This document shows, in pieces, positions 3,086 to 14,892 of a DNA stretch of 64,000 nt (position 1 is the first letter of the stretch; every line of letters starts with the position of its first letter). Source of the stretch: Dyadobacter sandarakinus. Lineage in GTDB: Bacteria; Bacteroidota; Bacteroidia; Cytophagales; Spirosomataceae. The DNA is taken from positions 3,412,001 to 3,476,000 of the forward strand of contig NZ_CP056775.1 in assembly GCF_016894445.1 (NCBI RefSeq), given 5' to 3'. The notes under the pieces are model-generated. The model ran no database searches, was not told where the DNA came from, and saw nothing but the letters and a program-made list of their open reading frames with translations. The translations under genes and the position numbers were made by a program.

Positions 3086-4426
3086 ATGATCGGATTACGG
3101 CATTTCAGTATCATGATTATGATCAGGATCACCCTGATCGTACTTAGTGTGATCGGACTTGCGTGGCTGGCTTCGGTCCATACCAATAGTACGCTGGTGT
3201 ATGTCATCGGGACGATTTTCATTTTTGCCCAGGCTTCGCTTCTGTACCAGTATGTGACCAATGTAAACCGGAAACTGACGTACTTCCTGGAATCTGTCCG
3301 CTACTCGGATTTTACGATCAATTTCCGGGCAGACAACAAGATGGGGCGGACGTTCAAGGAACTGAACCAGCAGTTTAACGAAGTACTGCATGCTTTCAGA
3401 CAGGCGCGGGCCGAAAAAGAGGCCAATCTGCAATACCTGAATACCATTGTGCAACATATCGGTACGGGCCTGATCACATTTGACAGTACCGGGCAGGTTA
3501 ACCTGATCAACAATGCGGCATTGCGGATGCTGGGCATTTACCGGCTGCACCACCTCAACGAGCTCCGCGACCGCCACCCGCGGCTGTACGAGCTGCTCTC
3601 AACCCTCGACAGCGGCGTGCGGGAGCTTTACCGTACCCCATCCGACCAGCCACTGGCCCTGCAGGGAGCAGCCATCCAGCTGAGGGGAACCTGGGTACGT
3701 ATTGTTGTTTTACAAAACATACAGACCGAACTTCAGCAGCAGGAAATCGAGTCGTGGCAAAACCTGACCCGGGTGCTGCGGCATGAGATCATGAATTCCA
3801 TGACACCCATTGTATCGCTGGTAGGCACCATGCGCCTGATTGTGAACGAAGACATTGAACGCTCGACCAATGATCAGGAAGCCGTAAATGACCTAAAGGA
3901 AGCACTTTCGACGCTCGAAAAGCGTAGTAAGGGCATGATGCAGTTTGTGAATGCCTACCGGGATTTTACCACCCTGCCTAAACCGGTATTTGCCAGTATC
4001 AGTGTGGAAGAGTTACTGCAGGAAGTGATCCAGTTGCTTCAGACAGACCTGACCCGGTCGGGTGTGCTCTGGAAGCTGTCGGTAAAGCCCGAGGACCTGA
4101 CCGTAAAGGCCGACGCGAGCCAGATTCAGCAGGTATTGATTAATCTTATCAAGAATGCGTCGGAGGCATTTTCCACCCAAACCAACCGTACCATCAGTCT
4201 GTCGGCCTACCAGGTAGATAATGTTGTTATGATTGAGGTGGCCGACAATGGCGATGGCATTGAGCCGGAAGCTATGGAAAATATTTTCATCCCCTTTTAC
4301 ACTACCAAAAAAACAGGCTCAGGCATCGGGCTCAGTCTTTCGAGGCAGATTCTGCAGCAGCATAATGGTCAGCTGAATGTTGCATCCGACGTAGGAAAAG
4401 GTACAGTTTTTACGTTAATTATCTAG
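3086..4426 (+). CDS. Membrane sensor histidine kinase, NtrY/AtoS-like
   Basis: A 446-residue sensor kinase. Two hydrophobic segments (about residues 8-30 and 36-56) give a short periplasmic hairpin, so there is no large extracellular sensor. A linker helix and a PAS-like domain (about 110-215) follow. The dimerisation domain carries the phosphoacceptor His at about residue 233 in VLRHEIMN. The ATPase domain has the N box (NLIKNASEA, near 353), G1 (DNGDGI, near 388) and G2 (GSGIGLSLS, near 412). No response regulator gene is adjacent, so the partner is encoded elsewhere. In related bacteria NtrY-like kinases pair with sigma-54 activators, which is only a possibility here. Confidence 0.88.
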   Translation: MIGLRHFSIMIMIRITLIVLSVIGLAWLASVHTNSTLVYVIGTIFIFAQASLLYQYVTNVNRKLTYFLESVRYSDFTINFRADNKMGRTFKELNQQFNEVLHAFRQARAEKEANLQYLNTIVQHIGTGLITFDSTGQVNLINNAALRMLGIYRLHHLNELRDRHPRLYELLSTLDSGVRELYRTPSDQPLALQGAAIQLRGTWVRIVVLQNIQTELQQQEIESWQNLTRVLRHEIMNSMTPIVSLVGTMRLIVNEDIERSTNDQEAVNDLKEALSTLEKRSKGMMQFVNAYRDFTTLPKPVFASISVEELLQEVIQLLQTDLTRSGVLWKLSVKPEDLTVKADASQIQQVLINLIKNASEAFSTQTNRTISLSAYQVDNVVMIEVADNGDGIEPEAMENIFIPFYTTKKTGSGIGLSLSRQILQQHNGQLNVASDVGKGTVFTLII

Positions 4427-7716: not shown

Positions 7717-9021
7717 ATGTCGGCTGAGCAGACTGCTACCCTCAAGAAAGTTCTTAAGCCAATCCACCTGTGGGCCATCGCCGTGGGCCTTGTTATTTCC
7801 GGAGAATATTTCGGCTGGAATTATGGCTGGGGAGTGTCGGGCACAATTGGATTTCTGATTGCCACGCTGCTGGTCACAGTCCTGTATGTCACCTTCATTT
7901 TCAGCTTCACCGAGCTTACCACATCCATCCCGCAGGCTGGCGGACCTTTTTCTTATGCCTACAAAGCATTCGGCTGGTGGGGCGGGCTCATTGCGGGTTA
8001 TGCAACACTGGTTGAGTTCCTGATCACCCCTCCTGCAATTGCATTTGCACTGGGCAGCTATGCTCATTTTCTGTACCCTTCCTTGCAGGTACTTGAAGTG
8101 GCTTTTGCGTGCTACTTTATTTTTATCCTTATTAATTTACTGGGGATCAAGGAGTCAGCCATGTTTTCGCTTGTGGTAACCATTCTTGCCGTGGCCGAGC
8201 TGCTGGTGTATGTAGGGATCATTATGCCCAGCTTTTCAATGGAAACTTTCGTGACCGATCCTATGCCTTTTGGCTGGCCGGGTGTATTTGCCGCGCTGCC
8301 TTTTGCGATCTGGTTTTACCTGGCGATCGAGGGTGTGGCGATGGTGGCCGAAGAAGTGGAAGATCCCCGCCGCAACATTTCACGCGGCTACATTTACGGC
8401 ATACTGACACTGGTCGTACTGGCACTGGCAGTCATGATTTTTACGGGCGGCGCCGCCGACTGGAAGCTCCTCAGCAAGATCGATTATCCGTTACCGGCTG
8501 TGCTGGGCATGGTACTCGGCCGCGACAGCCCCCTGACAAAGCTTTTTGCGAGCCTGGGCCTTTTCGGACTTATTGCATCGTTCCACGGCACGGTGATCGG
8601 GTACTCGCGGCAAATTTATGCACTGGCACGGGCGGGTTACCTGCCTGCGGTACTGGGTGAGGTCAATGCACGCTTTCAAACACCTCACTGGGCCCTGGTT
8701 GCAGGCGGCATTGCAGGCTGTGCGGCGCTGCTGCTTGGCACAACAGACCAGGTGATTATCCTCGCCGCTTTGGGAGCTGTGGTCATGTACATGGTCAGCA
8801 TGGCTGCATTGTTTGCATTGCGTCAGAAAGAACCGGCCATGGACCGTCCTTTTTCCGTACCATTGTATCCCTGGTTTCCGGCCATTGCACTCCTGCTTTC
8901 CGCAGTTTGCCTGGTGGCGATCGTTTACTACAACCTGATGCTCAGCCTGTGGTTTTTCGGAGGGCTTGCTGCCATCGCAGGAATTTTTGTACTTACCAGA
9001 AATCAGGAAAGTGCGAAATAG
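7717..9021 (+). CDS. APC-family transporter resembling ethanolamine permease
   Basis: Inner-membrane transporter of 434 residues with about 12 hydrophobic segments. LWAIAVGLVISGEYFGWNYGW near residues 18-38 is the signature of the ethanolamine permease branch. PQAGGPFSYAYKAFGWWGGLIAGYA, FYLAIEGVAMVAEEVEDPRRNISRGYI and GTVIGYSRQIYALARAGYLPAVLGEV also agree with that group. No ethanolamine ammonia-lyase genes are in the window, so the substrate is inferred from similarity only. The PI-PLC-like gene upstream could release phospholipid headgroups, which would give the pair a common theme, but that is speculation. Confidence 0.8.
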   Translation: MSAEQTATLKKVLKPIHLWAIAVGLVISGEYFGWNYGWGVSGTIGFLIATLLVTVLYVTFIFSFTELTTSIPQAGGPFSYAYKAFGWWGGLIAGYATLVEFLITPPAIAFALGSYAHFLYPSLQVLEVAFACYFIFILINLLGIKESAMFSLVVTILAVAELLVYVGIIMPSFSMETFVTDPMPFGWPGVFAALPFAIWFYLAIEGVAMVAEEVEDPRRNISRGYIYGILTLVVLALAVMIFTGGAADWKLLSKIDYPLPAVLGMVLGRDSPLTKLFASLGLFGLIASFHGTVIGYSRQIYALARAGYLPAVLGEVNARFQTPHWALVAGGIAGCAALLLGTTDQVIILAALGAVVMYMVSMAALFALRQKEPAMDRPFSVPLYPWFPAIALLLSAVCLVAIVYYNLMLSLWFFGGLAAIAGIFVLTRNQESAK

Positions 9022-11865: not shown

Positions 11866-12918
11866 TTAAAAAAGGCGCATCTGACCGGCGCGCACAAATT
11901 GCGTGCAATCCAGCTCAGGCAGAGATTTATCTTTGAAGTATTTACGGCAGGCCAGCTCATGCAGCTGACGGATGTTTTCGGCAAAAATCCCCTCGCCTGT
12001 CATTCTTGTTCCAAACCGTGAGTCATTGACCATTCCTCGGTGACAACTTCTGATCTGGTTCAGTACTTTGGCGGCCTTGTCGGAAAAGTGGTGATGGATC
12101 CATTCTTCAAAAAGTGTGCTGATGGCTCCGTTGAGTCTTACGACCGTATAACTTGCCCATACCGCGCCGTTTTCCGAAGCCGCTTTGACGATAGCAGGAA
12201 TCTCATGGTCATTCAATCCAGGTATAATCGGTGCGGTCATAACTCCGGTGGGTACTCCGGCTTCATGCAGTGTTTTTACAACCTGTAACCTTCTCTGGCC
12301 AGTGACCGTACGCGGTTCGAGCGCACTGCGCAGCTCCTCATTAAGTGTTGTAATGGAAATAGCCGCATGCACGAGGTTGAGCTTCGCCATTTTTTCAAGA
12401 ATGTCCCTGTCACGGAGTACCAATGCATTTTTGGTCAGAATGCTGACAGGATTGCGGTATTTAAGACAGATTTCGAGCAGCTGGCGCGTGATCCGGTACT
12501 TCTTCTCTCCGGGCTGGTAGCAGTCGGTGTTGCCCGACAAATGGATCGCGTGCGGTTCCCATTTTTTGGAGTTAAAAAGCTTTTCCAATAACTGGGGAGC
12601 ATTCTTTTTGACAATAATCTTGGTCTCAAAATCAAGACCGGCAGAATAACCCCAGTATTCGTGAGAGTTGCGTGCATAGCAGTAAATGCACCCGTGCTCA
12701 CAACCGCGGTAAGGATTAATGGAATGAAAATCGGGAAGGTCAGGACTCTTCGACACGTTCACCAACGTTTTAGAGTCCTCTTCAATAAACTGCGTTTTGG
12801 GATTGTCTTGGGGATCATCCCATCGCTGCCAATCTTCCAGAATATACTCCACCTCATGCCTGGTAAACTTATTCTGAGGATTAACAGCAGCTCCTCTTCC
12901 CTTTACGCGATTGTCCAT
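11866..12918 (-). CDS. Radical SAM protein, PA0069 family (SplB-like)
   Basis: A 350-residue radical SAM enzyme of unknown reaction. PYRGCEHGCIYCYARNSHEYWG near residues 69-90 supplies the three cysteines (CxxxCxxC) for the 4Fe-4S cluster, with the family-typical YCYAR. IHLSGNTDCYQPGEKKYRITRQLLEI and LTKNALVLRD follow as the SAM-binding barrel, and ITTLNEELRSALEPRTVTGQRRL is diagnostic for the PA0069/Rv2578c group related to spore photoproduct lyase. The ATG at 12918 lies only 16 bases from the edge of the large repeat region, so the whole upstream sequence is repetitive. Function is unknown; a DNA-repair-like or anaerobic role has been guessed for the family but not shown. Confidence 0.85.
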   Translation of the reverse strand: MDNRVKGRGAAVNPQNKFTRHEVEYILEDWQRWDDPQDNPKTQFIEEDSKTLVNVSKSPDLPDFHSINPYRGCEHGCIYCYARNSHEYWGYSAGLDFETKIIVKKNAPQLLEKLFNSKKWEPHAIHLSGNTDCYQPGEKKYRITRQLLEICLKYRNPVSILTKNALVLRDRDILEKMAKLNLVHAAISITTLNEELRSALEPRTVTGQRRLQVVKTLHEAGVPTGVMTAPIIPGLNDHEIPAIVKAASENGAVWASYTVVRLNGAISTLFEEWIHHHFSDKAAKVLNQIRSCHRGMVNDSRFGTRMTGEGIFAENIRQLHELACRKYFKDKSLPELDCTQFVRAGQMRLF

Positions 12919-12933
12919 GGGGAGGTGGTTTAA

Positions 12934-13217
12934 TTTTGAATGATTGAATGACTGAATGATTGAATGATGGAGTTTTGAGTTAGTGAGTTAGTGAGGGAGT
13001 GAGTTTTGAATGATTGAATGAGTGAATGAGTGAATGAGTGAGTTTTGAGTTAGTGAGGGTGTGAGTGAGTAAGTTTTGAATGATTGAATGACTGAATGAT
13101 TGAATGAATAAGTTTTGAGTTAGCGAGGGTGTGAGTGAATGAATTTTGAATGATTGAATGACTGAATGATTGAATGAGTGAGTTTTGAGTTAGTGAAGGT
13201 GTGAGTGAGTGAATGAA
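12934..13217. repeat. 70-bp tandem repeat array, left half of an inverted satellite
   Basis: Four tandem copies begin at 12934, 13004, 13074 and 13144 (spacings 70, 70, 70, the last copy 74). Each copy is TTT, nine quartets mostly TGAN (TGAA TGAT TGAA TGAC ...), TTT, then about seven more TGAN/GGTG quartets. The copies differ by a few substitutions. On the plus strand TGA falls in all three frames. The array starts 16 bases upstream of the radical SAM start codon. Confidence 0.92.
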
Positions 13218-13370
13218 TTTTGAATGATTAAATTTTAAATATCTAAGCAATCTAAGATATGCATGTTGAAGTTATTCAGTATTATTTCAAATATGCACTC
13301 ACTTACTAATTTACTCACCCAAAATTCATTAGTCATTCAGAAATCACTAATTCGAAATTCTTCCAATCAT
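13218..13370. other. Core between the two repeat arrays
   Basis: The bases from about 13228 to 13297 are AT-rich and not built of the quartet. They contain a short palindromic patch (ATATGCAT near 13257) and ATATGCAC near 13292. From about 13298 on, degenerate NTCA quartets appear and grade into the right-hand array. Confidence 0.6.
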
Positions 13371-13742
13371 TCAAATTCACTCAATCATTCGCTCACTCGA
13401 TAACTCAAAATCCATTCAGCCATTCAAAACTCAGTAATTCAATAATTTAAAACTCAATCATTCAAATTAACTCAGTCATTCGCTCACTCACTCACTCACT
13501 CACTCAAAATTCATTCAATCATCCAGCCATTCAAAACTCAGTAATTCAATAATTTAAAACTCAATCATTCAAATTCACTCAGTCATTCGCTCACTCACTC
13601 ACTCACTCACTCAAAATTCATTCAATCATTCAGCCATTCAAAACTCAGTAATTCAATAATTTAAAACTCAATCATTCAAATTAACTCACTCATTCGCTCA
13701 CTCAAAACTCATTCAATCATTCAGTCATTCAATCATTCAAAA
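13371..13742. repeat. 107-bp tandem repeat array, right half of the inverted satellite
   Basis: The marker CCATTCAAAACTCAG recurs at 13420, 13527 and 13634, an exact 107-base period. Each unit is made of NTCA quartets (ATTCA, CTCA, TTCA, ATCA) broken by AAA spacers, that is, the reverse complement of the left-hand TGAN/TTT grammar. Within each full unit a CTCA run of five to six copies looks like a microsatellite. A shortened first unit precedes 13420. Confidence 0.9.
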
Positions 13743-13816
13743 TTAGATCACTCCCTCCCTCACTCACTCACTAACTCAAAATTCATTCAATCATTCAATC
13801 ATTCAGTCATTCAAAA
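13689..13816. repeat. Inverted copies of the left 70-bp unit
   Basis: The stretch to 13739 and again the stretch 13747-13816 read ACTCA...AAAA-type sequence closely matching the reverse complement of the 70-bp unit at 12934-13217 (CACTAACTCAAAA followed by ATTCA/ATCA quartets and ending TCATTCAAAA). They end 6 bases before the M42 peptidase stop codon. The repeat thus fills the entire space between the two genes. Confidence 0.82.
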
Positions 13817-13821
13817 ACCTC

Positions 13822-14892
13822 TCACCTGATATACCGATAATCCTCTCCGCCTTTCAGCGACAGGAGGACGTCGTACATGAGCTGAATTACGTTTTGAACG
13901 TCTTCTTTATGCACCATTTCAACGGTTGTGTGCATGTATTTCAATGGAAGTGAGATCAATGCAGAGGCGATACCTTCGGTGGAGTATGCAAATGAATCGG
14001 TATCGGTGCCTGTTGAACGGCTCACAGCCTGGCGCTGGAAAGGAATGTTTTTTTCCTCCGCCACCCGGATCAGCATGTCGCGCACATTGTTCTGCACGGC
14101 AGGCCCGTAACAAATTACCGGCCCGTTGCCACATCTCAGGTCACCCTGCTCTTTTTTGTTATACATCGGCGACTGTGTATCGTGGGTCACATCCGTACAG
14201 ATAGCCAGGTCCGGTCTGAGCCGGCGCGCGATCATTTCGGCACCCCGCAAGCCGATTTCTTCCTGTACCGCATTGACCACATACAAGGTAAACGGCAGCT
14301 TTACACCATTTTCATGCAGCATTCGTGCCACTTCGGCGATCATAAATCCGCCCATACGGTTGTCCAGCGCGCGTCCCAGGTAAAAGCGGTCGTTCAGTTC
14401 GTCAAGGCCGTCCGCAAAAGTGACTACCGTGCCCACATGAATGCCCATTTCAAAAACCTCGTCTTTTTTGGTGGCCCCCACGTCAATGAACAATTCATGC
14501 ACTTTCGGAACCTGGTCTTTGGCAACGTCCCGCACGTGGATTGCCGGCCAGCCGAACACACCTTTTACCACACCCTTGGCCGTATGCAGGTTCACGCGCA
14601 TGGAAGGGGCAATGGCTGCGTCGGAGCCTCCGTTCCGGCGCACATGAATGTAGCCCTCTTCGGAAATATAATTGACAAACCACGAAATCTCGTCGGAATG
14701 CGCTTCGATGACGACCTTGTAATCCTGCCCGCCATTGATGACGCCCACTGCAGTACCGTACACGTCTACGATCTGCTCGTCAATGTACGGCCGGATATAG
14801 TCAAGCCAGATTTGCTGCCCTGTGGACTCGAAGCCGGTAGGGGAAGCATTGTTGAGGTACTTATAAAGAAATTCGGTGCTTTGATCTGCCAT
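13822..14892 (-). CDS. M42-family metallo-aminopeptidase (FrvX/glutamyl aminopeptidase type)
   Basis: Cytosolic dinuclear metal aminopeptidase of 356 residues. Metal ligands can be recognised: His in EAHSDEIS near residue 65, Asp in RALDNRMGG near 179, the catalytic Glu pair in VQEEIGLRGAE near 212, Asp in ICTDVTHD near 234, and His in KYMHTTVEMVH near 323. The central beta-barrel insert (about 70-160) is the M42 dimerisation/oligomerisation domain. Such enzymes assemble into tetrahedral dodecamers that trim peptides. It is the last gene of a minus-strand run greA, small HExxH protein, peptidase, before the repeat region. Confidence 0.92.
   Translation of the reverse strand: MADQSTEFLYKYLNNASPTGFESTGQQIWLDYIRPYIDEQIVDVYGTAVGVINGGQDYKVVIEAHSDEISWFVNYISEEGYIHVRRNGGSDAAIAPSMRVNLHTAKGVVKGVFGWPAIHVRDVAKDQVPKVHELFIDVGATKKDEVFEMGIHVGTVVTFADGLDELNDRFYLGRALDNRMGGFMIAEVARMLHENGVKLPFTLYVVNAVQEEIGLRGAEMIARRLRPDLAICTDVTHDTQSPMYNKKEQGDLRCGNGPVICYGPAVQNNVRDMLIRVAEEKNIPFQRQAVSRSTGTDTDSFAYSTEGIASALISLPLKYMHTTVEMVHKEDVQNVIQLMYDVLLSLKGGEDYRYIR

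What the first reader, a model, noticed from the sequence alone, without database searches (positions are those of the whole stretch)
12934..13816. Inverted satellite of TGAN quartets with TTT spacers fills a whole intergenic region
The left half is four 70-bp copies made of TTT, nine TGAN quartets, TTT and seven more quartets. The right half has a 107-bp period and the exact reverse grammar (NTCA quartets, AAA spacers), plus copies of the 70-bp unit itself in inverted orientation. The two arrays share one tetranucleotide rule but have different higher-order periods, which suggests repeated local duplication within an inverted structure. Nothing in it looks like a mobile element or CRISPR.
Basis: seen in the sequence. 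Interest (0 to 1): 0.78.

Follow-up and report, generated by a model that had tools for sequence, protein, structure and literature searches.

The report
Inverted repeat arrays hugging gene ends
Between two genes of a Dyadobacter bacterium lies an 883-base mirror-image array of short repeats, one of about 36 such places in the genome; many sit tightly against gene ends and recur in the same gaps of related species, keeping a seven-letter word while the eighth letter changes freely, which hints that something still maintains them.

Summary
The array is real. It fills 883 of the 903 bases between a radical-SAM and an M42-peptidase gene and is a long imperfect inverted repeat (DNA fold z = -20.5). 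It is one of about 36 dispersed places in this 6.07-Mb Dyadobacter genome. The unit is TTT(TGAATGAB)n, B = C, G or T. Arms read away from the gene edge they abut; outer ends lie a median of 0 bp from stop codons. At least 20 of 40 array gaps have an array in the same gap of another species, although 147 of 201 four-fold sites differ from G016. 35 of 48 genus genomes have a hit, against 2 of 395 sampled across the phylum, this one included. Between sister species the seven fixed letters change slowly (10 of 250), the eighth fast (14 of 30; four-fold sites 13-18%). Most likely: an old family of extragenic fold-back repeats, rebuilt by octamer gain and loss, working like REP/BIME hairpins; single arms, however, favour start codons. 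Membership in REP is not met; no U-tract terminator was found. Function is inferred, not shown.

The parts
12934..13233 (+). left arm: 4.3 units of 70 bp, each a TTT(TGAATGAB)n block followed by a TTT block of TGAG with TTAG or GGAG; reads away from the radical-SAM gene
13234..13376 (.). irregular centre (loop side) with decayed repeat traces
13377..13704 (-). inner part of the right arm: 3.1 copies of a 107-bp unit, NTCA quartets on the + strand
13705..13816 (-). outer part of the right arm: inverted counterparts of the left-hand blocks (two TGAATGAB blocks around one TGAG/TTAG block); reads away from the M42 gene
12919..12933 (.). 15 bases between the array and the radical-SAM start codon; the leader of about 55 bp seen in several relatives is absent here (read by eye)
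13817..13821 (.). five bases between the array and the M42 stop codon
11866..12918 (-). radical-SAM gene (PF04055), downstream neighbour in the direction of transcription
13822..14892 (-). M42 aminopeptidase gene (PF05343), upstream neighbour; the array follows its stop codon

Best explanation
It is the longest continuous array I examined of a Dyadobacter family of gene-edge-anchored fold-back repeats. An arm begins with AATTTTGAATGAB next to a stop or start codon and runs away from that gene as (TGAATGAB)n, in this genome with TGAG-type blocks in between. In most array gaps the opposite edge carries a second arm, so the gap can fold into a long imperfect hairpin. Shown: dispersal, orientation rule, edge anchoring, recurrence in the same gaps of other species, gain and loss of whole octamers, and slower-than-synonymous change of the seven fixed letters with free change of the eighth. 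Inferred: arrays grow and shrink by octamer slippage and by larger (70- and 107-bp) duplications; the seven-letter word and the fold-back geometry are kept because the transcribed repeat acts at the ends of messages and between cistrons, in the manner of REP/BIME hairpins (3'-end protection or differential expression within a tandem pair), or because a factor reads the word. Here the array would lie in the M42 3' UTR and directly before the radical-SAM start codon.
For: About 36 places in the genome (64 matches grouped by hand; 40 of 53 first-look candidates were scored; one place, L153, fell below my cluster threshold). Order of arms in 126 array gaps of Dyadobacter loci: +- 74, - only 26, + only 22, +-+- 3, +-+ 1, never -+. 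Of 48 single-arm gaps the arm is nearer the edge it reads away from in 35, nearer the other in 5, undecided in 8. Outer ends (taken as 3 bp before the first TGA.TGA) lie a median of 0 bp from stop codons (82 of 106 within 10 bp) and 10 bp from starts (47 of 98 within 10 bp). Array gaps are divergent less often than other gaps of the same loci (13 of 126 against 109 of 499, odds ratio 0.41, p = 0.004). The same gap is occupied in another species for at least 20 of 40 own array gaps, and 12 of 20 G016 regions match, although 147 of 201 comparable four-fold sites of the neighbour genes differ between G000 and G016. At the M42 gap 43 of 45 species fold at -17 kcal/mol or lower and 38 of 45 reach z <= -3 against 50 mononucleotide shuffles, two of them at a rounded -3.0; in 39 of the 45 the sequence is not TGAN. 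Sister species: 10 of 250 fixed letters and 14 of 30 eighth letters differ; four-fold sites 52 of 297 and 42 of 316.
Against: No expression data. In tandem gaps with one arm, the arm belongs to the start-codon edge in 32 of 43 and to the stop edge in 11, which does not favour a purely 3'-end role and fits a leader role as well. Convergent gaps are not significantly enriched (27 of 126 against 82 of 499, p = 0.19). At the second gap 6 of 30 species have only 1-5 bp between the stop codons, and two relatives show no hairpin at the M42 gap, so the array is dispensable. Some one-arm arrays show no fold-back stem in their predicted fold (without a shuffle control). Free letters of the two arms do not pair beyond chance, which pairing-driven selection would not predict. 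Arm lengths correlate weakly (Spearman 0.28, 95 elements). Why the eighth letter is seldom A is unexplained.
Confidence: 0.4

Rival explanations
1. Neutral slippage satellite: octamer microsatellites that arose in gaps tolerant of insertion, expand and contract, and do nothing; gene edges are simply where coding constraint stops them.
For: Neighbouring eighth letters within an arm agree more often than expected (332 of 689 against 268 +- 12), as slippage predicts. Whole-octamer indels separate sister species. Nearly pure (TGAG)n and (TCAA)n runs occur.
Against: A neutral process should treat all eight positions alike, but one is free and seven are held. Arrays recur in the same gaps although four-fold sites are nearly saturated. 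The orientation rule (never -+ in 126 gaps) needs an extra cause.
Confidence: 0.26
2. A non-autonomous transposable palindrome (REP/MITE-like) that spread through a clade ancestor by a transposase now lost or unrecognised, and has since decayed and expanded in place.
For: A constant outer end, AATTTTGAATGAB, in both orientations (A at -2 and -1 in 93% and 86% of 136 outermost arms, positions that no search pattern required). Dispersed copies, and presence/absence between relatives: gaps of 1-5 bp against arrays of 41-619 bp.
Against: No target-site duplication recognisable between filled and empty gaps (read by eye). No fixed length or core. Many gaps are shared between species. The only Y1_Tnp match of the genome lies in a 3.3-kb locus with no TGA.TGA.TGA or TCA.TCA.TCA and with hairpins of another sequence. 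Transposases of other families were not searched.
Confidence: 0.2
3. Bidirectional intrinsic transcription terminators.
For: Hairpins directly after stop codons, few arrays in divergent gaps, and other hairpins in the same gap in relatives.
Against: The stem ends in AAAA, not in a U tract, and the scan of 12300-14400 finds no terminator-like site in the array (4 hits, all below 12601). Convergent pairs without room for a terminator exist. Single arms favour start codons.
Confidence: 0.05
4. Templated repeat addition: a telomerase-like reverse transcriptase adds TTTTGAATGAB repeats to both 3' ends of a break between genes, which are then joined.
For: Would explain arms that read away from both edges, arms independent at the variable letter, single arms and the absence of target duplications. 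Tandem-repeat DNA synthesis by bacterial DRT10 is reported in a preprint (PMC12632851; start of the abstract in the listings, passages).
Against: The genome has one RVT_1 match, closest to Drt6 and Drt4 models, with no TGAATGA or TCATTCA in its 3.5-kb locus. Some sister arrays share all or part of their variable letters and differ by one octamer (L067/L323, left arm of L089/L318), which looks like slippage. An odd GC-rich module recurs in both arms at one gap (G003).
Confidence: 0.04

Closest known systems
TAACTGA direct repeats of Beggiatoaceae, Cyanobacteria and some Bacteroidetes (MacGregor 2015, PMC4679880; abstract and sections 7 and 12 read)
   Same: Short-word tandem repeats in gene gaps, most of them tight against start codons and oriented by the gene edge; [quoted passage not shown] Patchy over Bacteroidetes and Cyanobacteria.
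   Different: Heptamer word TAACTGA; sets of two to six copies in the main genome of that study; 1 inverted set of 170 there, whereas 78 of 126 gaps here carry both orientations; an octamer with one free position here.
REP / BIME extragenic palindromes (PMC3733652 passages; starts of other abstracts in the listings)
   Same: Extragenic, dispersed, able to fold, near gene ends, several units per gap.
   Different: No GTAG or CGTC tag, no 20-40 bp unit, no RAYT association found, about 36 places instead of the more than 100 copies usual for REPs (abstract of PMC2817692 in the listing), and a fold built from an octamer repeat.
Tetranucleotide simple-sequence repeats (contingency loci; recalled, no call)
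   Same: Steps of four or eight bases, local length variation.
   Different: Inverted, dispersed as one family, edge-anchored, with a held word and a free base; not inside a coding sequence.

Membership tests
REP / BIME | 20-40 bp palindrome tagged GTAG or CGTC at one end | tested here: not met
   Outer end is AATTTTGAATGAB; definition from PMC3733652 (listing, passages)
REP / BIME | associated RAYT (Y1) transposase flanked by the same repeat | tested here: not met
   One Y1_Tnp match; its 3.3-kb locus has no TGA.TGA.TGA or TCA.TCA.TCA, one lone ATTCAAAA, and AAGGTGCGTAGCACCG-type hairpins
REP / BIME | extragenic and able to form a hairpin | tested here: met
   for this array (z -20.5, 0 of 20 shuffles fold as well); one search shows one-arm arrays without such a stem
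MITE | terminal inverted repeats | tested here: met
   78 of 126 gaps carry both orientations; 48 carry one arm only
MITE | target-site duplication at filled sites | tested here: inconclusive
   Gaps of 1-5 bp against filled gaps show no recognisable duplication, read by eye
MITE | related autonomous element | not tested
   Only Y1_Tnp, RVT_1 and the 23S-IVP family were searched
TAACTGA-type edge repeats | repeat word TAACTGA | tested here: not met
   Word is TGAATGAB
TAACTGA-type edge repeats | tandem short words abutting start codons in one orientation | tested here: met
   47 of 98 arms at start edges lie within 10 bp of the start; orientation
Intrinsic terminator | GC-rich stem followed by a U tract | tested here: not met
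Known RNA family | Rfam match above gathering score | tested here: not met
   12300-14400: one match below its cut-off (SCARNA7, 20.5 bits against 65), taken as chance
CRISPR array | near-identical repeats separated by unique spacers | tested here: not met
   Units are contiguous without spacers; cas genes were not searched
Telomerase-like RT product | RT with a nearby RNA template of the repeat | tested here: not met
   a template elsewhere in the genome is not excluded

The most novel reading that the evidence does not exclude
Gene-edge repeats are a maintained system rather than debris: a protein or RNA factor reads TGAATGA words (free eighth base, seldom A) laid outward from stop and start codons, and bacteria change the word between lineages (TGAATGAB here, TAACTGA in Beggiatoaceae, possibly the GTCAGG and GTCATTGG arms seen in other Dyadobacter gaps) while keeping the geometry.
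Probability: 0.18. Interest if true: 0.85.

Novelty: new variant of a known kind. Interest (0 to 1): 0.57.

Why it matters
Bacterial gene gaps usually turn over quickly. Here low-complexity arrays recur in the same gaps, in the same orientation, in species whose four-fold sites are nearly saturated, with one base in eight free and seven held. That allows direct tests of whether such extragenic repeats are selected, homogenised or continually re-made. It also offers a natural series (1-bp gaps to 619-bp arrays at one convergent gene pair within one genus) for testing what hairpins between genes do to their neighbours.

Tried and rejected
RAYT/REP origin: rejected as membership because the single Y1 match carries other hairpins. 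IVP (four-helix, PF05635) cargo: such a gene lies between two arms at L168, but the genome has only two matches to the family. In four other species (G003, G011, G040, G043) a pattern hit lies about 100 bp from an IVP match, which looks like one shared gap; orthology was not checked. Telomerase-like synthesis: tested through the only RT and not supported. Recent inversion or palindrome correction as the source of the arms: not supported by chance-level matching of the free base. A Bacteroidetes -7 box (TAnnTTTG, motif recalled) at the outer end: 67 of 136 outermost and 23 of 86 inner starts fit; since AA and TTTT belong to the repeat itself this was not pursued. The orientation rule in other words: too few cases (AGTCAGG 6 gaps, GTCATTGG 7 gaps); the GC-rich hairpin word GTCACCCTGAGCG shows both orders (15 gaps), so the rule is not general.

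The distance from array to M42 stop was corrected to five bases.

Limits. Genes were called by my own longest-ORF script, so start codons are approximate. Cluster thresholds were 5 marks. The statistics use G000, G016 and 16 named genomes; the loci of three further named Dyadobacter (L093, L127, L133) and of other genera were left out, while one search also counts one Larkinella and one Saprospiraceae element. Loci and the G016 regions were found with patterns that contain TTTTGAATGA, so conservation of those letters is partly built in; one search gives figures from gaps found through their genes and from the G000 places (after a perfect heptamer the next seven letters are conserved at 67-92%, the eighth letter is A in 8-11%). 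In one search, 46 of 48 genomes matched; 45 were analysed (30 returned loci and 15 fetched) and G060 was not fetched. In one search, 46 of 48 matched; the 30 returned as loci were analysed. The sister comparison used six aligned stretches from two species pairs; the L058/L315 pair, in which the arrays of the two species were detected in different gaps, and the inner part of L329/L331 were left out. Its excess at the eighth letter may come partly from aligning octamers that are not homologous. An earlier count said 14 of 20 G016 loci; the scripted count is 12 of 20. Literature: the listings showed no paper on this family, but several were cut to the best 15 or 20 of many, and one search did not require the word TGAATGA in every paper, so this is no proof of absence.

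Full report
Observation. The region 12934-13816 is a real, highly non-random array. Tandem Repeats Finder reports a 70-bp unit (4.3 copies, 12932-13233) and a 107-bp unit (3.1 copies, 13377-13704). TGANTGANTGA occurs 58 times in the window, all inside the array, against 0.47 expected. Written in quartets, each 70-bp unit is a TTT block of TGAATGAB octamers followed by a TTT block of TGAG with TTAG or GGAG. The whole folds as single-stranded DNA with -211.7 kcal/mol against -93.1 +- 5.8 for 20 shuffles, left arm against right arm. The gap is 903 bp long, between a radical-SAM gene starting at 12918 and an M42 peptidase gene ending at 13822, both on the minus strand. No Rfam family reaches its gathering score, and no promoter-like or terminator-like site of the simple scan falls in the array.

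Not a private satellite. The window lies in a closed 6.07-Mb genome. The genus is inferred to be Dyadobacter: same-genus genomes G010, G014, G020, G043, G056 and G058 have contigs of exactly the length of named Dyadobacter records. The left arm matches 64 stretches of the genome at E <= 0.01 (40 of 53 first-look candidates scored), which I grouped by hand into about 36 places. The pattern TTTTGARTKANTGARNGNNTGA has 51 hits against 1 for its reversed control. I fetched the 35 other places; 34 of 35 pass a simple cluster threshold (L153 does not). Cluster spans run from 23 to 877 bp.

Geometry. In 126 array gaps of Dyadobacter loci (G000, G016 and 16 named genomes) the order of marks is +- in 74, - in 26, + in 22, +-+- in 3 and +-+ in 1, never -+. 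Of the 48 single-arm gaps, 35 have the arm nearer the edge it reads away from, 5 nearer the other, 8 undecided. The outer end of an arm lies a median of 0 bp from a stop codon (106 arms) and 10 bp from a start (98 arms). The outer end has the consensus AATTTTGAATGAB. Array gaps are divergent in 13 of 126 cases against 109 of 499 for other gaps of the same loci (p = 0.004); the excess of convergent gaps is not significant (27 of 126 against 82 of 499, p = 0.19). Against a purely 3'-end role, single arms in tandem gaps belong to the start edge in 32 of 43.

Two gaps in detail. At the window gap 45 species were compared. This genome has 903 bp, the others 57 to 273 bp. Five others (G016, G014, G042, G039, G051) carry short versions at the M42 stop codon. 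They belong to one clade of seven (support 100/100), of which the other two (G019, G007) have no hairpin at all. Of the 39 species without TGAN marks, 37 (all but G019 and G007) fold at -17 kcal/mol or lower with other sequences; over all 45 species, 38 reach z <= -3 against mononucleotide shuffles. At a second gap, between two convergent genes (a DUF423-like and a RodA-like protein, names recalled), 30 species were compared. Seventeen carry arrays of 41-619 bp, four carry remnants of 13-21 bp, six have only 1-5 bp between the two stop codons, and three have other sequence. The array usually starts directly at the stop codon of the first gene, or a TGA stop codon is itself the first word of the array, while that protein ends at the same residue in 28 of 30 species (read by eye).

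Age and distribution. Of 40 array gaps of this genome, 20 (in 18 of 36 places) have an array in the same gap of at least one other species, requiring both flanking genes to match and be adjacent; 12 of 20 G016 regions match. These are lower bounds, because not all arrays of other species were fetched. Of comparable four-fold sites of the two neighbour genes, 147 of 201 differ between G000 and G016, so inheritance without constraint or renewal should have erased the grammar. In the genus 35 of 48 genomes have at least one hit to TTTTGAATGANTGAATGANTGA and 29 have three or more. Laid on the tree (rooted at the midpoint for drawing only), 28 of 29 genomes of one half have three or more, against 1 of 16 of the other half (G041). 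In a phylum sample 2 of 395 genomes have a hit, this one included. Sporadic copies occur in Larkinella, Pontibacter, Persicitalea, Spirosoma, Saprospiraceae bins and a few cyanobacteria; that they share the TTTTGAATGA end is partly due to the search pattern.

The eighth letter. In chains of TGAATGAN the free base is T 355, G 340, C 244, A 35, with different mixtures in different species. In gaps found through their genes and in the G000 places, the base after a heptamer is A in 11% and 8%, while the next seven letters are conserved at 67-92%. Free bases of left and right arms agree in 60 of 151 pairs, as expected by chance within species (61.6 +- 5.0). Within an arm, neighbours agree more often than chance (332 of 689 against 268 +- 12). 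In six stretches from two sister pairs, 14 of 30 free bases and 10 of 250 fixed letters differ, where four-fold sites differ at 13-18%. Octamer-wise gain and loss, visible directly in L067/L323 and L089/L318, can explain much of the free-base turnover. It does not explain why the other seven letters are held.

Reading. The best-supported account is an old family of extragenic fold-back repeats that expanded in one part of Dyadobacter, recurs in place, and is rebuilt by octamer slippage under constraint on the heptamer. Its position (at stop codons and just before starts in tandem pairs, rare between divergent genes) and the presence of other hairpins in the same gap of relatives make a REP/BIME-like role in messages the most likely function. 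This step is inference; the start-edge excess of single arms leaves a leader role, as proposed for TAACTGA repeats, open. Absence in several species shows that the role is dispensable at a given gap.

Comparison with known kinds. REP/BIME: may work alike, membership not met (tag, unit, RAYT). MITE: ends partly alike, duplication inconclusive, autonomous partner not sought. TAACTGA repeats (PMC4679880): the same edge-oriented geometry with another word and almost no inverted sets. Terminators: not met. Telomerase-like products: not supported. The novelty is therefore a new variant: an octamer word with one free position, inverted arms, stop-codon anchoring, and recurrence in the same gaps.

Noticed in passing
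L156, L159, L172, L174, L184 (own genome); L187, L201, L207 (window gap of relatives): A dispersed GC-rich hairpin repeat (TTGTCACCCTGAGCGGAGTCGAAGGG and variants) lies between or beside TGAN arms, or stands in their place at the same gap.
   Followed up: partly
L159 around 3900-4200; L191, L209; L290, L302, L310: Short GC-rich inserts (CCGGGCCGCCGGGCGG-like, GACCGGGTCGCCGGGCGAT, CCGCCGTGGAACGGGG) sit inside the GC-rich hairpins and inside TGAN arms, in L290 in both arms, like very small insertion units.
   Followed up: no
L288, L313 (second gap); L041, L046, L170: Arrays of other words (AGTCAGG, GTCATTGG) appear in gaps of the same kind, some with inverted arms; case numbers are too small for a rule.
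   Followed up: partly
L231 (G000:C1:4023811-4024152): The single Y1 (RAYT-like) transposase match is flanked by AAGGTGCGTAGCACCG-type hairpins, a separate repeat family.
   Followed up: partly
L168:4693-5058: A 23S-rRNA-IVP-like four-helix protein gene lies between a TGAN arm and an NTCA arm; pattern hits about 100 bp from IVP matches in four other species suggest the same gap there.
   Followed up: partly
L314:1090-2922: The only RVT_1 match of the genome is a Drt6/Drt4-like defence reverse transcriptase.
   Followed up: yes
L151:4911-5025: A nearly pure (TGAG)n run of about 20 quartets follows a 178-aa ORF; a likely length-variable marker.
   Followed up: no
window 8852-8902: A 2.3-copy 22-bp tandem repeat.
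   Followed up: no
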